From: Candidatus Methylomirabilota bacterium
GTDB taxonomy: Bacteria > Methylomirabilota > Methylomirabilia > Methylomirabilales > JACPAU01
Reading direction: 5' to 3'
Length of the DNA: 13,174 nt
NCBI GenBank assembly: GCA_016180705.1
Contig: JACPAU010000126.1
Location: 1-13,174 of the forward strand
This document shows, piece by piece, positions 2,380 through 6,726 of the stretch (positions are counted from its first letter, which is position 1; the number at the start of each line of letters is the position of its first letter). The position numbers and the translations under genes are program-made. The notes beneath the pieces were generated by a model. The model did not search any database and was not told the origin of the DNA. It saw only the letters and a list, made by a program, of their open reading frames with translations.

Positions 2380-2409
2380 TTGACAGGGAGGCGTGGCGTC
2401 CGCTATAGT
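2380..2409 (+). promoter_or_regulatory. Sigma70-type promoter of the AAA-JAB-E1-Ubl operon
   Basis: A perfect -35 TTGACA (2380-2385) and a near-consensus -10 TATAGT (2404-2409) are separated by 18 nt. Transcription would start near 2416, giving a leader of about 40 nt. A GGAG ribosome-binding site at 2446-2449 sits 6 nt before the ATG at 2456. No operator-like palindrome is obvious, so the operon may be constitutive. Confidence 0.75.
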
Positions 2410-2455
2410 ACTGCCGCTAGGAAAATCCGCTACTTAGGGACCGCTGGAGCCAGCC

Positions 2456-4174
2456 ATGCGCGAGGGTGTGCCGGCCTGGATCGCGGCCCTCGAGGCCAAG
2501 CTCGAGGCCAAGACCGGTTCGGTCTTCCTGCTTCACGGCAACGTGGCCGATTACGTCCCACTCGGAGGCGAGTTCGTCCCGCTCCGCACCTTCCTCATCC
2601 GCCGATTCGGGCACCGGGCCCGCGTCATCTGCTATAACCGCTCGGGCGGTCTCGCCTTCTCGGACAGCACGACCGAAGCCCGGTTCCGGTCCCTCGTGGG
2701 CTATGCGGCGCCCCCCCCGGGTTCCCCCGAGGCGCTCCGGGAACGGGCGGCCCAGGCGCTCGGGGAGCCCGAGGGGACGCGCCGCCTCCCGACCGCGCCG
2801 GCCCAGGTGATCCCCCTGCTCGACCGCGCGCTGCAGAGCCTGTGCCTCTCGGACGAGGAGCAGGAACGGGTGCTCCTGATCCTGGAGTTCGCCGAGACCC
2901 TCGTGCCGGCGGGGGACCTGGCCGCGCTGTCCGACGAGGACCGCGGGACGTTGGTTGCCCTGCTGCGCTGGGCGGAGGAGCCGCGGCTCGCGGCCGTGGG
3001 GACCGTGGTCCTCCTCCTGGTCAGTGCGCTGAGCGACGTACATTCGCGGCTCCGGGACCCGAGCGCGCGGGTGGAGGCGCTGGAGGTCTCCCTGCCCGAC
3101 TACGCGGAGCGCCTCGCCTTCCTCCGGGCCCGCGCCGCCGGGGACGGACGGGGCAGGGGCCTGCCGCTGGAGGAACTGGCCACCACCTCGGCCGGCCTCT
3201 CCCGAATCCAGCTGGAGGGCCTGCTGAAGGAGGCGACGGGACGGGCCCGACCCCTCAGCCACGAGGAGGTCAAGACCCGGAAGCGGGAACTGCTCCAGCA
3301 GGAGTTCCAGGGAATGCTGGAGACCCTGGAGCCCCAGTTTGGGCTCGATGCCATCGGCGGCCTGGAGCCGGTGAAGACCTTCTTCCGGGAGGTCATCGCG
3401 GCCCTCCGGGGCGGGGAGGCGAAGCTGGTCCCCCGGGGGATCACCCTGGTCGGTCCCCCCGGCGTGGGGAAGACGGCGCTGGCGGAGGCCCTCGCCTACG
3501 AGTGTGGGTTCAACTTCGTGAAGGTGATCAACGCGCGCGAGCGGTGGGTGGGGCAGTCGGAGCGCAACTACTGGAAGATCCTCCAGGCGCTCCGGTCCAT
3601 GACCCCGGTGGTGGTGGTGGAGGACGAGGCGGACCAGAGCGAGCACTCGCGCGACGAGGCGTCCGCCGACTCCGGGGTCTCCAACCGCCTCCGGCAGATG
3701 CGGTTCGAGTTCACCGGGGATCCGCGGATCCAGGGCCAGGTCCTCTGGATCCGGATCAGCAACCGGCCGGACCGCCTGGACATGGCCGAGAAGCGCTCGG
3801 GGCGGGCCTCGGAGCGGATTCCGCTGGTCCTCCCGGATCGGGAGGAGATGGCGAGCATCTTCGCCGTCATGCCCCGCAAGCACGGCTTTCCGGTGGGAGG
3901 GGTGGACTTCGGGGCGCTGGCCGTGTACTGCGACGCATGTTACCCCGGACAGGTCACGGGGGCGGACATCGAGGAGATCTCCCTGCGCGCCTACCGGCAC
4001 GCGCGGATCCGGGGGGCGGGGGCGGTGGAGGACGCGGACTACCGGTGGGCCATCGAGGACTTCATCCCGGCCCTCAGCGCCGAGACGCTCCGGGCCCACG
4101 AGGCGATGGCGGTCGCCTGCTGCTCCTCCCGCCGGTTCCTCCCGCCCCGGTACCAGGGGGGAGGGCGGGCGTGA
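2456..4174 (+). CDS. Tandem AAA+ ATPase with a degenerate first domain, first gene of the ubiquitin-like operon
   Basis: This 572-residue protein has two AAA-like halves. The C-terminal half (about 295-520) is an apparently active AAA module. It has Walker A GPPGVGKT (333-340), an aromatic pore-loop-like RWVGQSE (363-369), Walker B VVVVEDEAD with D390/E391, sensor 1 ISNRPDRLD (434-442), an arginine-rich segment at 447-454, and lid motif TGADIEE (501-507). The N-terminal half (about 15-265) follows the same order but lacks a P-loop. LLHGNVADY (25-33) stands where Walker A would be. LLILEFAETL (140-149) resembles a Walker B strand and VVLLLVSALSD (184-194) a sensor 1 strand. LPDYAERLAFL (213-223) and a lid-like helix (243-260) follow. 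I infer a Cdc48-like D1/D2 arrangement with a dead D1. It overlaps the JAB gene by 4 nt (GTGA), so the two are probably translationally coupled. It may unfold or remodel modified substrates. The substrate is unknown. Confidence 0.9.
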   Translation: MREGVPAWIAALEAKLEAKTGSVFLLHGNVADYVPLGGEFVPLRTFLIRRFGHRARVICYNRSGGLAFSDSTTEARFRSLVGYAAPPPGSPEALRERAAQALGEPEGTRRLPTAPAQVIPLLDRALQSLCLSDEEQERVLLILEFAETLVPAGDLAALSDEDRGTLVALLRWAEEPRLAAVGTVVLLLVSALSDVHSRLRDPSARVEALEVSLPDYAERLAFLRARAAGDGRGRGLPLEELATTSAGLSRIQLEGLLKEATGRARPLSHEEVKTRKRELLQQEFQGMLETLEPQFGLDAIGGLEPVKTFFREVIAALRGGEAKLVPRGITLVGPPGVGKTALAEALAYECGFNFVKVINARERWVGQSERNYWKILQALRSMTPVVVVEDEADQSEHSRDEASADSGVSNRLRQMRFEFTGDPRIQGQVLWIRISNRPDRLDMAEKRSGRASERIPLVLPDREEMASIFAVMPRKHGFPVGGVDFGALAVYCDACYPGQVTGADIEEISLRAYRHARIRGAGAVEDADYRWAIEDFIPALSAETLRAHEAMAVACCSSRRFLPPRYQGGGRA

Positions 4175-4839
4175 TTCCCCTCTACCTCAAGGGCTCGGAC
4201 TTCGTGGAGCCGGCCGACCCCGTCTATTACCTGCTCACGCGGGACGGGCTCTTCCTGGTGAAGCGGACCGCCGTTTTTGCCTCCTGCACGCGCGTGCGAG
4301 GCCTCCCCTGGCTGGCCGGTGCGGGCGAGGAGGTCCGCTGGCGCGGCCCCCGCGTTCCGGGGGCGCTGTTAGCCCGGGCGGTGGACTTTTTCCGGGAGGT
4401 CTACCGGCGCCACCAGGCCGAGGCAGTCGCGCTCCTCGTCAGCCGCGCGGACGGACCGAGCTTCGATCTGGAGGTTCCGGAGCAGGTCGTGGCCGGCGGG
4501 CATGCCCGCTATCGGATCGGCCCGTGCCCGCCCGGCGCGATCCGGGTCGGCACCCTGCACAGCCACGCGGGCGCCGAGGCCTTCCACTCGGACCTGGATG
4601 ACCTGGACGAGCGGCACGCCGATGGGCTCCACGTGACCGTGGGGACACTGGACCGCCGGCCGACCTATGCCTGCTCGCTGGTGGTGGACGGCCGCCGCTT
4701 CCGGCTCGATCCCCTGGAGATCTTCGAGGCCCTCCCGGGCGACGGGGGCCTGCCGGCCGATCCGGAGTGGCTCGCCCGCCTGCGGGTGGAGGAAGTCCCC
4801 CGCGACATCCACGAGGGGGGGCCGCCGGCGGCGGTCTGA
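4171..4839 (+). CDS. JAB/JAMM-domain metalloprotease (deubiquitinase-like, PRTRC-A-like)
   Basis: The 222-residue product carries a complete JAMM zinc-protease signature, HxH-x7-SxxD: H130, H132, S140 and D143 within LHSHAGAEAFHSDLDDLDE. E84 in AEAVALLV is the likely catalytic glutamate. An N-terminal region of about 80 residues precedes the JAB fold. This layout and the AFHSDLDDLDE signature remind me of the JAB protein of PRTRC-type systems. That comparison is from memory. Family members remove ubiquitin-like proteins from targets or trim their C termini. The start is GTG at 4171, overlapping the ATPase stop as GTGA, with a purine-rich GGGGGGAGGG just upstream. The same reading frame stays open far upstream inside the ATPase gene, but that part is a shadow. 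The stop lies 10 nt before the E1 gene. The likely job is processing the ubiquitin-like protein encoded two genes downstream, or cutting its conjugates. Confidence 0.9.
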   Translation: MIPLYLKGSDFVEPADPVYYLLTRDGLFLVKRTAVFASCTRVRGLPWLAGAGEEVRWRGPRVPGALLARAVDFFREVYRRHQAEAVALLVSRADGPSFDLEVPEQVVAGGHARYRIGPCPPGAIRVGTLHSHAGAEAFHSDLDDLDERHADGLHVTVGTLDRRPTYACSLVVDGRRFRLDPLEIFEALPGDGGLPADPEWLARLRVEEVPRDIHEGGPPAAV

Positions 4840-4849
4840 AGGGGTGCGG

Positions 4850-5530
4850 ATGCTGGAGATCCGGGTCATCGGCCTGGGGGGGATCGGCTGTGCCCTCGTG
4901 CCCCCGCTCGCCCGCTACCTCTACTACGCGGGGACCGCCTGCCGGCTGACGCTGGTGGACGGGGACGCGTTCGAGCAGCGCAACCTCCCCCGGCAGGCCT
5001 TCCGGGCCGGCGGCAACAAGGCACGGGTGAAGGCGGAGGAACTGGCCCAGGAGTTTCCCGGCCTCTCGGTCCGCGCGGTCCCGGAGTTCGTCACTACCGC
5101 CAACGCGCCCGACCTGATCCGGAGCGGCGACGTGGTCTTCCTCGGGGTGGACAACCATCGGACCCGCAGGGTGATCAGCGACCACTGCGAGCGGCTCGCC
5201 GACATCCTCCTGATCTCGGGGGGGAACGAGTGGACAGACGGGAACGTGCAGGTCTACCGCCGGCAGGGGGGCCGAGACCTCTCCGCCCCGCTCACCCGGT
5301 TTCATCCGGAGATCGCCGCCCCGGGTGACGCCTCACCCGCCGAGGCGTCATGCGACGCGGCGGCGGCCGCCGGGGCGCCGCAGCTCCTCTTCATGAATTT
5401 GACCGTCGCCTCGGCGATGCTGAACGCCTTCTACGCGTGGCAGCAGGGGGGACTCGGGTACGGCGAGGTGTACCTGGACATCCTGGCCGGTCGGTGCCAG
5501 CCGGTGGAGCGGAGGGGAGCTCGTGGGTGA
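4850..5530 (+). CDS. E1/ThiF/MoeB-like ubiquitin-activating adenylyltransferase
   Basis: This 226-residue Rossmann-fold protein starts at ATG 4850, after AAGGGG at 4839-4844. GTG 4844 is possible but would sit on that ribosome site. It has the nucleotide loop VIGLGGIG (6-13), the acidic strand VDGD (36-39) and the adenylation motif RNLPRQ (N45, R48, Q49). Lysines K57 and K61 and the substrate-facing GVDNHRTRR (D101) follow. C168 in EASCD, just before a PQLLFMNL helix, is the best candidate for the thioester cysteine. There are no CxxC zinc pairs, unlike MoeB and ThiF of cofactor pathways. No E2-binding ubiquitin-fold domain is attached, so it is minimal. By family knowledge it adenylates the C-terminal glycine of a beta-grasp protein. 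Its 3' end overlaps the Ubl gene by 8 nt, which makes that protein the natural substrate. Confidence 0.9.
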   Translation: MLEIRVIGLGGIGCALVPPLARYLYYAGTACRLTLVDGDAFEQRNLPRQAFRAGGNKARVKAEELAQEFPGLSVRAVPEFVTTANAPDLIRSGDVVFLGVDNHRTRRVISDHCERLADILLISGGNEWTDGNVQVYRRQGGRDLSAPLTRFHPEIAAPGDASPAEASCDAAAAAGAPQLLFMNLTVASAMLNAFYAWQQGGLGYGEVYLDILAGRCQPVERRGARG

Positions 5531-5831
5531 GGAACTGCGCGAGGCGAGCGGCACCCGGGCCGCGGCCCGGACGGAGGGCGCGGTCCGGATCGTCTATGGG
5601 ATCCACGCGCTGGAGGCGGCCGTTGCCGGGCGACCGGTAGCGGAGATCCGGCAGGCCCTCGCCCAGCCGCTGAACATCAGCCCCCGAGCGGTCGCGGTGG
5701 TGGACGGCGAGGTGGTCGCCGAGGGCCACCTCCTGCAGGCCGGGCAGCAGCTGGAGTTCGTCCGGCTCGCGGGAGAAAAGGGCGCCCCTAGAGATACTGC
5801 CCGTAGCGGATTTTTTCCACCACTTCCTTGA
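5523..5831 (+). CDS. Ubiquitin-like beta-grasp protein (MoaD/ThiS/PRTRC-C-like)
   Basis: This is a 102-residue protein with a GTG start at 5523. GGAGGGGA (5511-5518) lies 4 nt upstream, and the start overlaps the E1 stop. Residues about 20-87 read as a beta-grasp fold. A first strand VRIVYG is followed by a helix with AGRPVAEIRQAL and LNISPRAVAVVDGEVV. GHLLQAGQQLEFVRLAGEKG ends the domain, and its LQxGxxLEFV element is the typical penultimate turn and last strand of MoaD-like and ubiquitin-like proteins. It does not end in Gly-Gly. After GEKG (84-87) comes a 15-residue tail with FFPPLP, encoded over the 3' end of the convergent ATPase gene. The tail could be removed by the neighbouring JAB protease to expose a glycine, or the protein may act without trimming. 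Residues 1-19 look unstructured. The function (protein tag or sulfur carrier) is inferred from fold and operon. Confidence 0.82.
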   Translation: MGEELREASGTRAAARTEGAVRIVYGIHALEAAVAGRPVAEIRQALAQPLNISPRAVAVVDGEVVAEGHLLQAGQQLEFVRLAGEKGAPRDTARSGFFPPLP

Positions 5832-6726
5832 TCCGCCGGTAGTCCTCGATCACCCGGAGGATGTCGTCGGTCTCCACGGGGCCGGGGTTCTCCCCGGCCC
5901 CCTCCCGCCGGGCCTTTTCCTCCAGCGCCCGCCGCAGCACCTCTGCCAAGTCCCCCCCGCTCATCTTCACCGTCCGCGCCAGGATGGCGTCGGAGTCCAG
6001 GGTGTGGAAGAGGGTCCGCCCCGCGCTGGCCTCGGCGCGCCGCTGGTGGATCGCCAGGATCTCCCGCTTCTCGTCCCCGTCCGGCAGGGGAACCTCGATC
6101 AGGCGGTCCAGCCCCCCCGGGCCGACCAGGGTGGAGTCCAGCGCATCGGGCCGGCTCGTGGACGCGACGGCCAGCGTCTCCAGCATCCCGCCGAGCGCCT
6201 CCAGCCGTTCCAGGAGGACGGTGATGACGCGCCGGCTGGCCGCCCGCGCCTCTTCCCCCGGGAACATCCGGTCGAAGGAGAGGGCGTCGATCTCGTCGAG
6301 GTACAGCACGCCGCGCCCGTTGCCTGCCAGGACCCGGAATACCTCCTGGATCAGCTCGCCCGAGTCCCCGTACCACTTGAAGACGATGTGCCGCATGCGG
6401 AGGTGGAAGAAGACCGCCTCCGCCTCGCGGGCCAGGGCCTGCGCCAGGAGGGTCTTCCCGGTCCCGGGGGGCCCGTAGAGGAGAACGCCCTTGACCGGCA
6501 CGGTCCCCCAACGCTGGTGCAGCTCCGGGCGGCGCAGCGCGAAAACGAGACTCTGGATCTCCCGCTTCGCCGCCGCCAGCCCGCCGATCTCCTGCAGGGT
6601 GACCTGCGGCCGCGGCACCATGTCCACCTTGCCGCGAAGGTCGCCGAAGCGCTTCGCGAGACCGGCCAGGAGATCCTCCAGGCGACGGAGACTCACGTCA
6701 GGGGGGGCGGGACGGTCTGGCCTCAT
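5788..6726 (-). CDS. AAA+ ATPase with a C-terminal GQYL proteasome-docking motif
   Basis: This 312-residue protein has a single AAA module of the classical Cdc48/proteasomal type. The motifs are GPPGTGKT (Walker A, 85-92), pore loop KWYGDS (117-122), LYLDEID (Walker B, 141-147), TSRPDALD (sensor 1 region, 190-197), GGLDRLIEVPLPD (204-216) and SGGDLAEVLRRA (lid, 256-267). The last four residues are Gly-Gln-Tyr-Leu (309-312). That is the C-terminal motif by which actinobacterial Mpa and PafE/Bpa bind pockets of the 20S proteasome. There is only a short helical N-terminal segment (about 1-35), with no OB domains like those of Mpa/ARC. It converges on the Ubl gene with a 44-nt tail-to-tail overlap and has its own upstream region of 71 nt. 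The start is ATG 6726; the ribosome site is weak (GAGG 3 nt away). I infer it is an unfoldase feeding a proteasome, linked to the adjacent tagging system. A non-proteasomal role cannot be excluded. Confidence 0.92.
   Translation of the reverse strand: MRPDRPAPPDVSLRRLEDLLAGLAKRFGDLRGKVDMVPRPQVTLQEIGGLAAAKREIQSLVFALRRPELHQRWGTVPVKGVLLYGPPGTGKTLLAQALAREAEAVFFHLRMRHIVFKWYGDSGELIQEVFRVLAGNGRGVLYLDEIDALSFDRMFPGEEARAASRRVITVLLERLEALGGMLETLAVASTSRPDALDSTLVGPGGLDRLIEVPLPDGDEKREILAIHQRRAEASAGRTLFHTLDSDAILARTVKMSGGDLAEVLRRALEEKARREGAGENPGPVETDDILRVIEDYRRIKEVVEKIRYGQYL

What the first reader, a model, noticed from the sequence alone, without database searches (positions are those of the whole stretch)
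2380..6726. Ubiquitin-like cassette (AAA+ - JAB - E1 - Ubl) facing a proteasome-docking-type AAA+ ATPase
Seen: four overlapping or closely spaced genes encode a tandem AAA+ protein, a JAMM protease with intact HxH-x7-SxxD, an E1 with GxGGIG and NxxR motifs, and a beta-grasp protein. They are tail-to-tail with an ATPase ending in GQYL. Known: bacterial JAB/E1/Ubl neighbourhoods have been described (PRTRC-type and Bil-type systems), and GQYL is the 20S-docking tail of Mpa and PafE/Bpa. Inference: here the two parts come together as a self-contained tag-and-unfold system outside the Pup pathway. I cannot tell whether this exact combination has been reported.
Basis: partly seen in the sequence, partly recalled or inferred. 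Interest (0 to 1): 0.92.

Follow-up and report, generated by a model that had tools for sequence, protein, structure and literature searches.

The report
Bacterial ubiquitin-like cassette beside proteasome cap
An uncultured NC10-type bacterium carries, in one chromosomal stretch, a set of genes that look able to attach and remove a ubiquitin-like tag, next to a separate gene whose protein appears built to plug into the proteasome and whose plug has been kept unchanged while its motor has decayed.

Summary
AAA1-JAB-E1-UBL (2456-5831, +) is a tight operon; an AAA protein (ATP2, 5788-6726, -) ending KIRYGQYL faces it. The UBL models as a MoaD/ubiquitin-like beta-grasp ending in an invariant Gly, followed in 9 of 13 species by a variable extension. 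JAB and E1 motifs are invariant in the relatives aligned. In 11 of 17 cassettes an E2-like gene sits inside; in the window's genus it lies elsewhere. UBL and E2-like genes track the cassette across the order (15/17 against 2/18; 16/17 against 1/18).

The one-system inference is only partly supported. ATP2 does not track the cassette (7/17 against 4/18) and occurs in 25/25 genomes of another family without it. Adjacency holds in 4/4 of the genus, and in another family in one genome with full ATP2 and two with a remnant. The bin lacks a 20S, but two sister bins break inside a Pup-ligase gene and one has Mpa/ARC, so the genus probably has a Pup-proteasome.

New here: ATP2's tail is invariant in 27/27 orthologues read while ATPase residues are repeatedly lost, down to 67-aa remnants. 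ATP2 is best read as a Cdc48-D2-like 20S cap drifting towards a PafE-like role. Novelty: new variant.

The parts
2456..4174 (+). AAA1, 572 aa: C-terminal AAA domain (Cdc48-D2-like) after a long N-terminal half of unassigned fold
   Evidence: Pfam AAA 330-456 E 1.4e-20; nearest PDB chains Cdc48/VCP, D2 by residue range; Walker A, pore loop [RK]WVG, Walker B and RSGR motif conserved in 16 aligned sequences
4171..4839 (+). JAB/JAMM metallopeptidase, 222 aa
   Evidence: PRTRC_A E 7.8e-7 and Prok-JAB E 0.0012, both below cut-off; catalytic Glu and HxH-x7-SxxD in 15 of 15
4850..5530 (+). E1-like adenylating enzyme, 226 aa
   Evidence: ThiF E 3.1e-23; adenylation motifs and three Cys (in GGIGC, in C-E/R/Q-x-L about residue 114, in SC[DE]) shared by the 16 aligned sequences
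5523..5831 (+). Ubiquitin-like protein; conserved core 5523-5783 ending at Gly87, then a 15-aa unconserved extension 5784-5828
5788..6726 (-). ATP2, 312 aa: single AAA domain with short N-terminal segment and 20S-docking-type tail
   Evidence: AAA E 2.9e-25; nearest PDB chains Cdc48/VCP, D2 by residue range; orthologues in 36 of 60 genomes
5791..5814 (-). Codons of the invariant tail KIRYGQYL of ATP2
   Evidence: 27 of 27 orthologues read; 116 of the 120 database homologues listed

Best explanation
Two chromosomal modules lie tail to tail. (1) A ubiquitin-like modification cassette: JAB trims the UBL precursor back to Gly87, E1 adenylates that Gly (MoeB-MoaD-like), the UBL is passed to proteins (through an E2-like protein encoded elsewhere in this genus), JAB removes it, and AAA1, a Cdc48-D2-like ATPase, pulls tagged proteins apart. 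(2) ATP2, a Cdc48-D2-like ring that docks on the alpha ring of the bacterial 20S proteasome through the same GQYL tail as Mpa/PafE. Docking and gate opening are its retained function; ATP hydrolysis has become dispensable in many lineages, so it works increasingly like the ATP-independent activator PafE. Shown by sequence or model: gene order, active-site motifs, beta-grasp model, tail identity and invariance, motor erosion. Inferred: conjugation itself, E2 role, AAA1 substrate, docking. A direct hand-over from the UBL to ATP2-20S is possible but not shown.
Confidence: 0.55

Rival explanations
1. One integrated pathway: UBL-tagged proteins are unfolded by AAA1 and/or ATP2 and degraded in the 20S, a second tag route beside Pup.
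For: Adjacency kept in 4/4 genomes of the genus and in a second family (G021 full ATP2; G012, G015 head-plus-tail remnant); GQYL tail.
Against: ATP2 and cassette do not co-occur beyond chance in the order (7/17 against 4/18, Fisher p 0.29; with remnants 9/17 against 4/18, p 0.09); 25/25 f7 genomes have ATP2 without a cassette-type E1; convergent genes are not expected to share a transcript.
Confidence: 0.2
2. Sulfur-carrier chemistry: UBL is a MoaD/ThiS-type carrier whose C-terminal thiocarboxylate feeds a cofactor, tRNA or metabolite pathway, not a protein tag.
For: Nearest folds include MoaD and TtuB; best E1 profiles include MoeB and ThiF; Iyer 2006 describes JAB in such sulfur operons (PMC1779556, one part of the text read).
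Against: E1 has no room for a rhodanese domain (226 aa); E2-like partner; a Cdc48-like ATPase; other E1-like matches exist in the same bin (C237, C220, C215); no cofactor genes among the window's other genes.
Confidence: 0.13
3. ATP2 docks on something other than the 20S, such as HslV, or on no protease.
For: Window bin has an HslUV-type pair and no 20S hit; G037/G039 keep the tail with no 20S pair, Pup ligase or ARC found.
Against: The HslU-like tail there is SRYIL, not GQYL; ARC tails of the same class are GQYL/GHYL; several 20S absences coincide with contigs ending inside Pup-ligase genes.
Confidence: 0.15
4. Mobile anti-phage system of the Bil or CBASS-accessory kind.
For: E1 has weak PADLOC E1-E2 (2.8e-8) and BilD (1.5e-4) hits.
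Against: E1 tree groups by host family, with weak deep forks; housekeeping neighbours; no relative of the JAB in viral contigs; E1 matches in phages (7 records, best 38% over 69%) and plasmids (33 records, best about 36%) are distant.
Confidence: 0.06

Closest known systems
PRTRC / type 6d Ubl cassettes (Iyer et al. 2006, PMC1779556, passages seen)
   Same: Stand-alone JAB with an extra N-terminal region, stand-alone E1, UBL, separate E2-like protein with a conserved Cys
   Different: Scores far below PRTRC cut-offs; chromosomal, E1 tree groups by host family; adds the Cdc48-like AAA1, which rows 6a-6e as seen do not list; E2-like family has no invariant His
Mpa/ARC proteasomal ATPase
   Same: AAA protein with C-terminal GQYL
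   Different: ATP2 is 312 aa with its AAA profile match starting near residue 40, so little room for coiled-coil plus OB domains; pup_AAA profile 71 bits against a cut-off of 505; AAA domain is Cdc48-D2-like; motor residues eroded
PafE/Bpa ATP-independent activator
   Same: GQYL tail; docking with no need of ATP hydrolysis (proposed here)
   Different: PafE shares only the GQYL motif with Mpa (PMC9599533 passage); ATP2 still carries an AAA domain except in two remnants
MoaD-MoeB / ThiS-ThiF
   Same: UBL fold and E1 adenylation motifs
   Different: Single terminal Gly, JAB and Cdc48-like partner, no cofactor genes in the window
Bil and CBASS Cap2/Cap3 Ubl systems (recalled)
   Same: E1, E2-like and JAB logic
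   Different: Not fused; no defence context seen; E1 hits weak

Membership tests
PRTRC system (NCBIfam) | JAB above PRTRC_A cut-off (101.8 bits) | tested here: not met
   28.8 bits; 36.5 for relative L096
PRTRC system (NCBIfam) | E1 above PRTRC_ThiF cut-off (144.75 bits) | tested here: not met
   52.3 bits
Type 6d cassette (Iyer 2006) | UBL + JAB + E1 + E2-like with conserved Cys | tested here: inconclusive
   UBL, JAB, E1 present; E2-like fold weakly supported, Cys invariant, gene outside the window's cassette
Type 6d cassette (Iyer 2006) | conserved His C-terminal to the E2 Cys | tested here: not met
   no His among invariant or nearly invariant columns of the 46-sequence alignment
Type 6d cassette (Iyer 2006) | JAB N-terminal domain with conserved Arg and Trp | tested here: not met
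   no Trp among invariant columns of 8 JABs
JAMM peptidase | Glu + HxH-x7-SxxD | tested here: met
   15 of 15
E1-like enzyme | ThiF profile and nucleotide/adenylation motifs | tested here: met
   82.6 bits against 28.1
Ubiquitin-like beta-grasp | b-b-a-b-b-b fold with flexible C-terminus ending in Gly | tested here: met
   predicted model only, pLDDT 74.5
Ubiquitin/MoaD C-terminus | diglycine | tested here: not met
   EKG
Mpa/ARC | pup_AAA profile above 504.75 bits | tested here: not met
   71.4 bits
20S activators of bacteria | C-terminal GQYL | tested here: met
20S activators of bacteria | binding to and opening of 20S | not testable with these tools
   needs biochemistry
Cdc48/Cpa | N domain plus two AAA domains (recalled) | tested here: not met
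   ATP2 has one AAA domain in 312 aa
E2 (UBC) enzymes | UBC fold | tested here: inconclusive

The most novel reading that the evidence does not exclude
These bacteria run two unrelated ubiquitin-like tags into one 20S: Pup through Mpa/ARC, and a true beta-grasp UBL (JAB, E1, E2-like) through a Cdc48-like remodeller (AAA1) and a second cap (ATP2). ATP2 has been stripped from motor to docking plug, so that an active AAA1 without a tail and a tailed ATP2 without a motor may divide the work of a proteasomal ATPase.
Probability: 0.2. Interest if true: 0.93.

Novelty: new variant of a known kind. Interest (0 to 1): 0.66.

Why it matters
A bacterial beta-grasp conjugation cassette with its own Cdc48-like ATPase, apparently inherited with the host lineage and living in a clade that also has Pup and the 20S, makes testable whether a ubiquitin-type tag ever led to a proteasome outside archaea and eukaryotes. 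The ATP2 family is a natural series from intact AAA motor to bare docking tail, and could show what a proteasome cap needs. The dop/pafA repeat shows why metagenome bins of this class can look proteasome-free when they are not.

Tried and rejected
20S lost in cassette-bearing genomes: rejected as uninterpretable. Counting PF00227 hits gave 4/17 against 14/18 (p 0.002), but dop and pafA share a 510-base identical stretch in complete genome G026 and contigs of several bins end inside Pup-ligase genes, so a short 20S contig can drop out of bins. The 20S set used was my own reading, partial hits of G030 and G034 counted as present.

E2-like gene lost from genomes whose cassette faces ATP2, that is, ATP2 replaces E2: rejected. 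The E2-like family is found elsewhere in G000, G001, G002, G012 and G015 (not in G003), and G021 holds AAA1-E2-like-JAB on one contig and E1-UBL-ATP2 on another. The tree does show separate cassette and second-locus clades and no cassette copy in the genus or in G012/G015.

E2-like gene as PRTRC_B / Prok-E2_D: my first guess, from memory; no such Pfam or NCBIfam hit in the relatives scanned (four, three), so only 'E2-like by weak fold match' is kept.

Phage or plasmid origin: no support. Known defence system: no JAB or UBL hit in PADLOC at E <= 0.1.

In print: searches of the open-access library for PRTRC + ubiquitin-like + JAB (0 papers), beta-grasp/JAB/AAA terms (1), UBact/proteasome/Methylomirabilis (10), proteasome/AAA/Methylomirabil (280, 20 listed), GQYL (11), PRTRC (26, 20 listed), bacterial ubiquitin terms (5), JAB domain/E2-like (4) and Methylomirabilota + ubiquitin (1 unrelated) showed no listed title on this combination; most subscription papers are not held. 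I recall a 2017 UBact paper on Pup in Gram-negative bacteria; it was not seen here.
Full report
What is there. The window is contig C278 of a 1.65-Mb, 302-contig bin, 64% complete. The cassette contigs of two of its three genus-mates (G001, G003) have the lengths of records titled Candidatus Methylomirabilota, so the host is taken to be NC10-type; that is an inference. Four genes on the plus strand overlap or nearly touch: AAA1 2456-4174, JAB 4171-4839, E1 4850-5530 and UBL 5523-5831. ATP2 (6726-5788) runs against them, and its last codons overlap the 3' end of UBL. Eight other proteins of the window that were scanned are ordinary: histidine kinase, M23 peptidase, DUF3568, LexA, LysM-transglycosylase, patatin, CutA1 and an HtrA-like protease. 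No tRNA was found.

Distribution. All 35 genomes held for the order were searched with the JAB alignment: 17 have it. Cassette-type E1 is in 16 of these; G007 is the exception, with AAA1, E2-like gene and JAB but no E1 in the 1.5 kb that follow nor elsewhere in its 70%-complete bin, and no UBL. UBL is found in 15 of the 17 and in 2 of the other 18 (one further marginal hit at E 0.009 left out). In family f4 it is not next to E1 but on another contig in G006 and G010. The E2-like family is in 16 of 17 and 1 of 18. Full ATP2 is in 7 of 17 and 4 of 18, p 0.29. These p-values ignore kinship. The E1 tree groups by host family, with weak deep forks. No cassette-type E1 and no E2-like gene was found in the 25 genomes of family f7, all of which have ATP2. 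In the species-genome collection 13 of 14 loci with a JAB relative are titled Methylomirabilota or NC10 kin; the other is a 4.9-kb contig labelled Heimdallarchaeota (L170), with an E1 47% identical to the window's.

Linkage. ATP2 faces the cassette in all four genomes of the genus and in G021 of family f3. In G012 and G015 of f3 the same place holds a 67-aa gene made of ATP2's head and tail with the AAA domain gone; its last 29 residues are identical in the two, and dN 0.048 is below dS 0.133 on few sites. The other cassettes read (G005, G006, G009, G010, G018, G022, G027, G029, G032) have no ATP2 in the stretch fetched, which is short past the cassette in G029 and G032; of these genomes only G010 has an ATP2, on another contig. 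In G007 the two lie on separate short contigs, so linkage cannot be told.

ATP2. In the PDB it is closest to Cdc48/VCP D2. Over 27 orthologues (11 from the order, 16 of 25 from f7; only these were read in full) the tail KIRYGQYL is 27/27. Walker A GK[ST] is 23/27, Walker B DE 23/27, sensor-1 Asn 10/27, the first Arg of the RPGR motif 4/27 and the second 26/27, the one miss being the window's own copy (residue roles are recalled). All five are canonical only in G010, G013, G016 and G025. Of the 120 database homologues listed, 118 end GQYL. GQYL opens the 20S gate for Mpa and PafE (passages of PMC9599533 and PMC12288473). The seven ARC tails read in this class are GQYL (3, f7) or GHYL (4, order), and the alpha subunit of ATP2-bearing G004 keeps K52, E119, D144 and S146 with R26 changed to K. 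So docking on the 20S is the likeliest reason for the invariance, and loss of motor residues suggests it no longer needs ATP in many lineages.

Is there a 20S? PF00227 gives one hit in the window's bin, HslV by its HslU-like neighbour, and one hit in each genus-mate; the window's bin also has no Pup-ligase and no ARC hit. But G002 has ARC at 727 bits, and contigs C4 of G002 (15,969 bases) and C170 of G003 (3,329 bases) end inside a Pup-ligase C-terminus next to a leucyl-aminopeptidase-like gene, as pafA and that gene lie in complete genome G026 (gene names are my reading). In G026 dop and pafA share 510 identical bases, which would break assemblies there. So absence is not shown for the genus. 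Against this, G037 and G039 show no 20S pair, no Pup ligase and no ARC at E <= 1e-60, at 93% and 100% completeness, yet keep ATP2 with its tail.

Conclusion. The cassette is a real module, shared across several families of the order, that looks fit for Ubl modification and has its own Cdc48-like ATPase: a new variant of the PRTRC/type 6d kind, not a member by the NCBIfam cut-offs. ATP2 is a separate 20S-cap-like family whose plug outlives its motor. Their adjacency is real and conserved in two families but not obligate; one pathway remains possible and unproved.

Noticed in passing
L101:2678-2881 (-) and L102:11105-11308 (-): 67-aa remnant of ATP2 (head plus KIRYGQYL tail, AAA domain deleted) beside the cassette in two related genomes, frame kept open in both
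   Followed up: partly
L173-L184 (G000 C291, G002 C215, G012 C221, G015 C14, G024 C11, G009 C22, G018 C65 and others): Second Ubl-type locus: alpha/beta hydrolase-like gene, one or two E2-like paralogues, a UBL paralogue ending AGEKG plus extension in three genomes, a JAB-like protein, a protein with HPHV...CLGN, helical and TPR-like proteins (names by eye)
   Followed up: partly
L140:12543-14027 and 15715-17073: dop and pafA share a 510-base identical stretch in a complete genome; several bins of the class have contigs ending inside these genes and no 20S hit
   Followed up: yes
L170 (DXJL01000071.1): Contig labelled Heimdallarchaeota with an 866-aa protein with an E2-like-family head, a 373-aa JAB and an E1 47% identical to the window's; the label may be wrong
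   Followed up: partly
L096, L097, L099 (family f4): Cassettes with no UBL next to E1; the UBL lies on another contig in G006 and G010, and in G013, which has no cassette in its bin
   Followed up: partly
L182 (G007 C115): AAA1, E2-like gene and JAB with no E1 in the 1.5 kb that follow
   Followed up: no
L082 (G037), L083 (G039): No 20S pair, Pup ligase or ARC found in these genomes, but ATP2 kept with its tail and with damaged Walker motifs
   Followed up: no
window 6091-6168: The window's own ATP2 has Gly in place of the second Arg of the RPGR motif and Ser for sensor-1 Asn; the two closest database copies keep the Arg
   Followed up: partly
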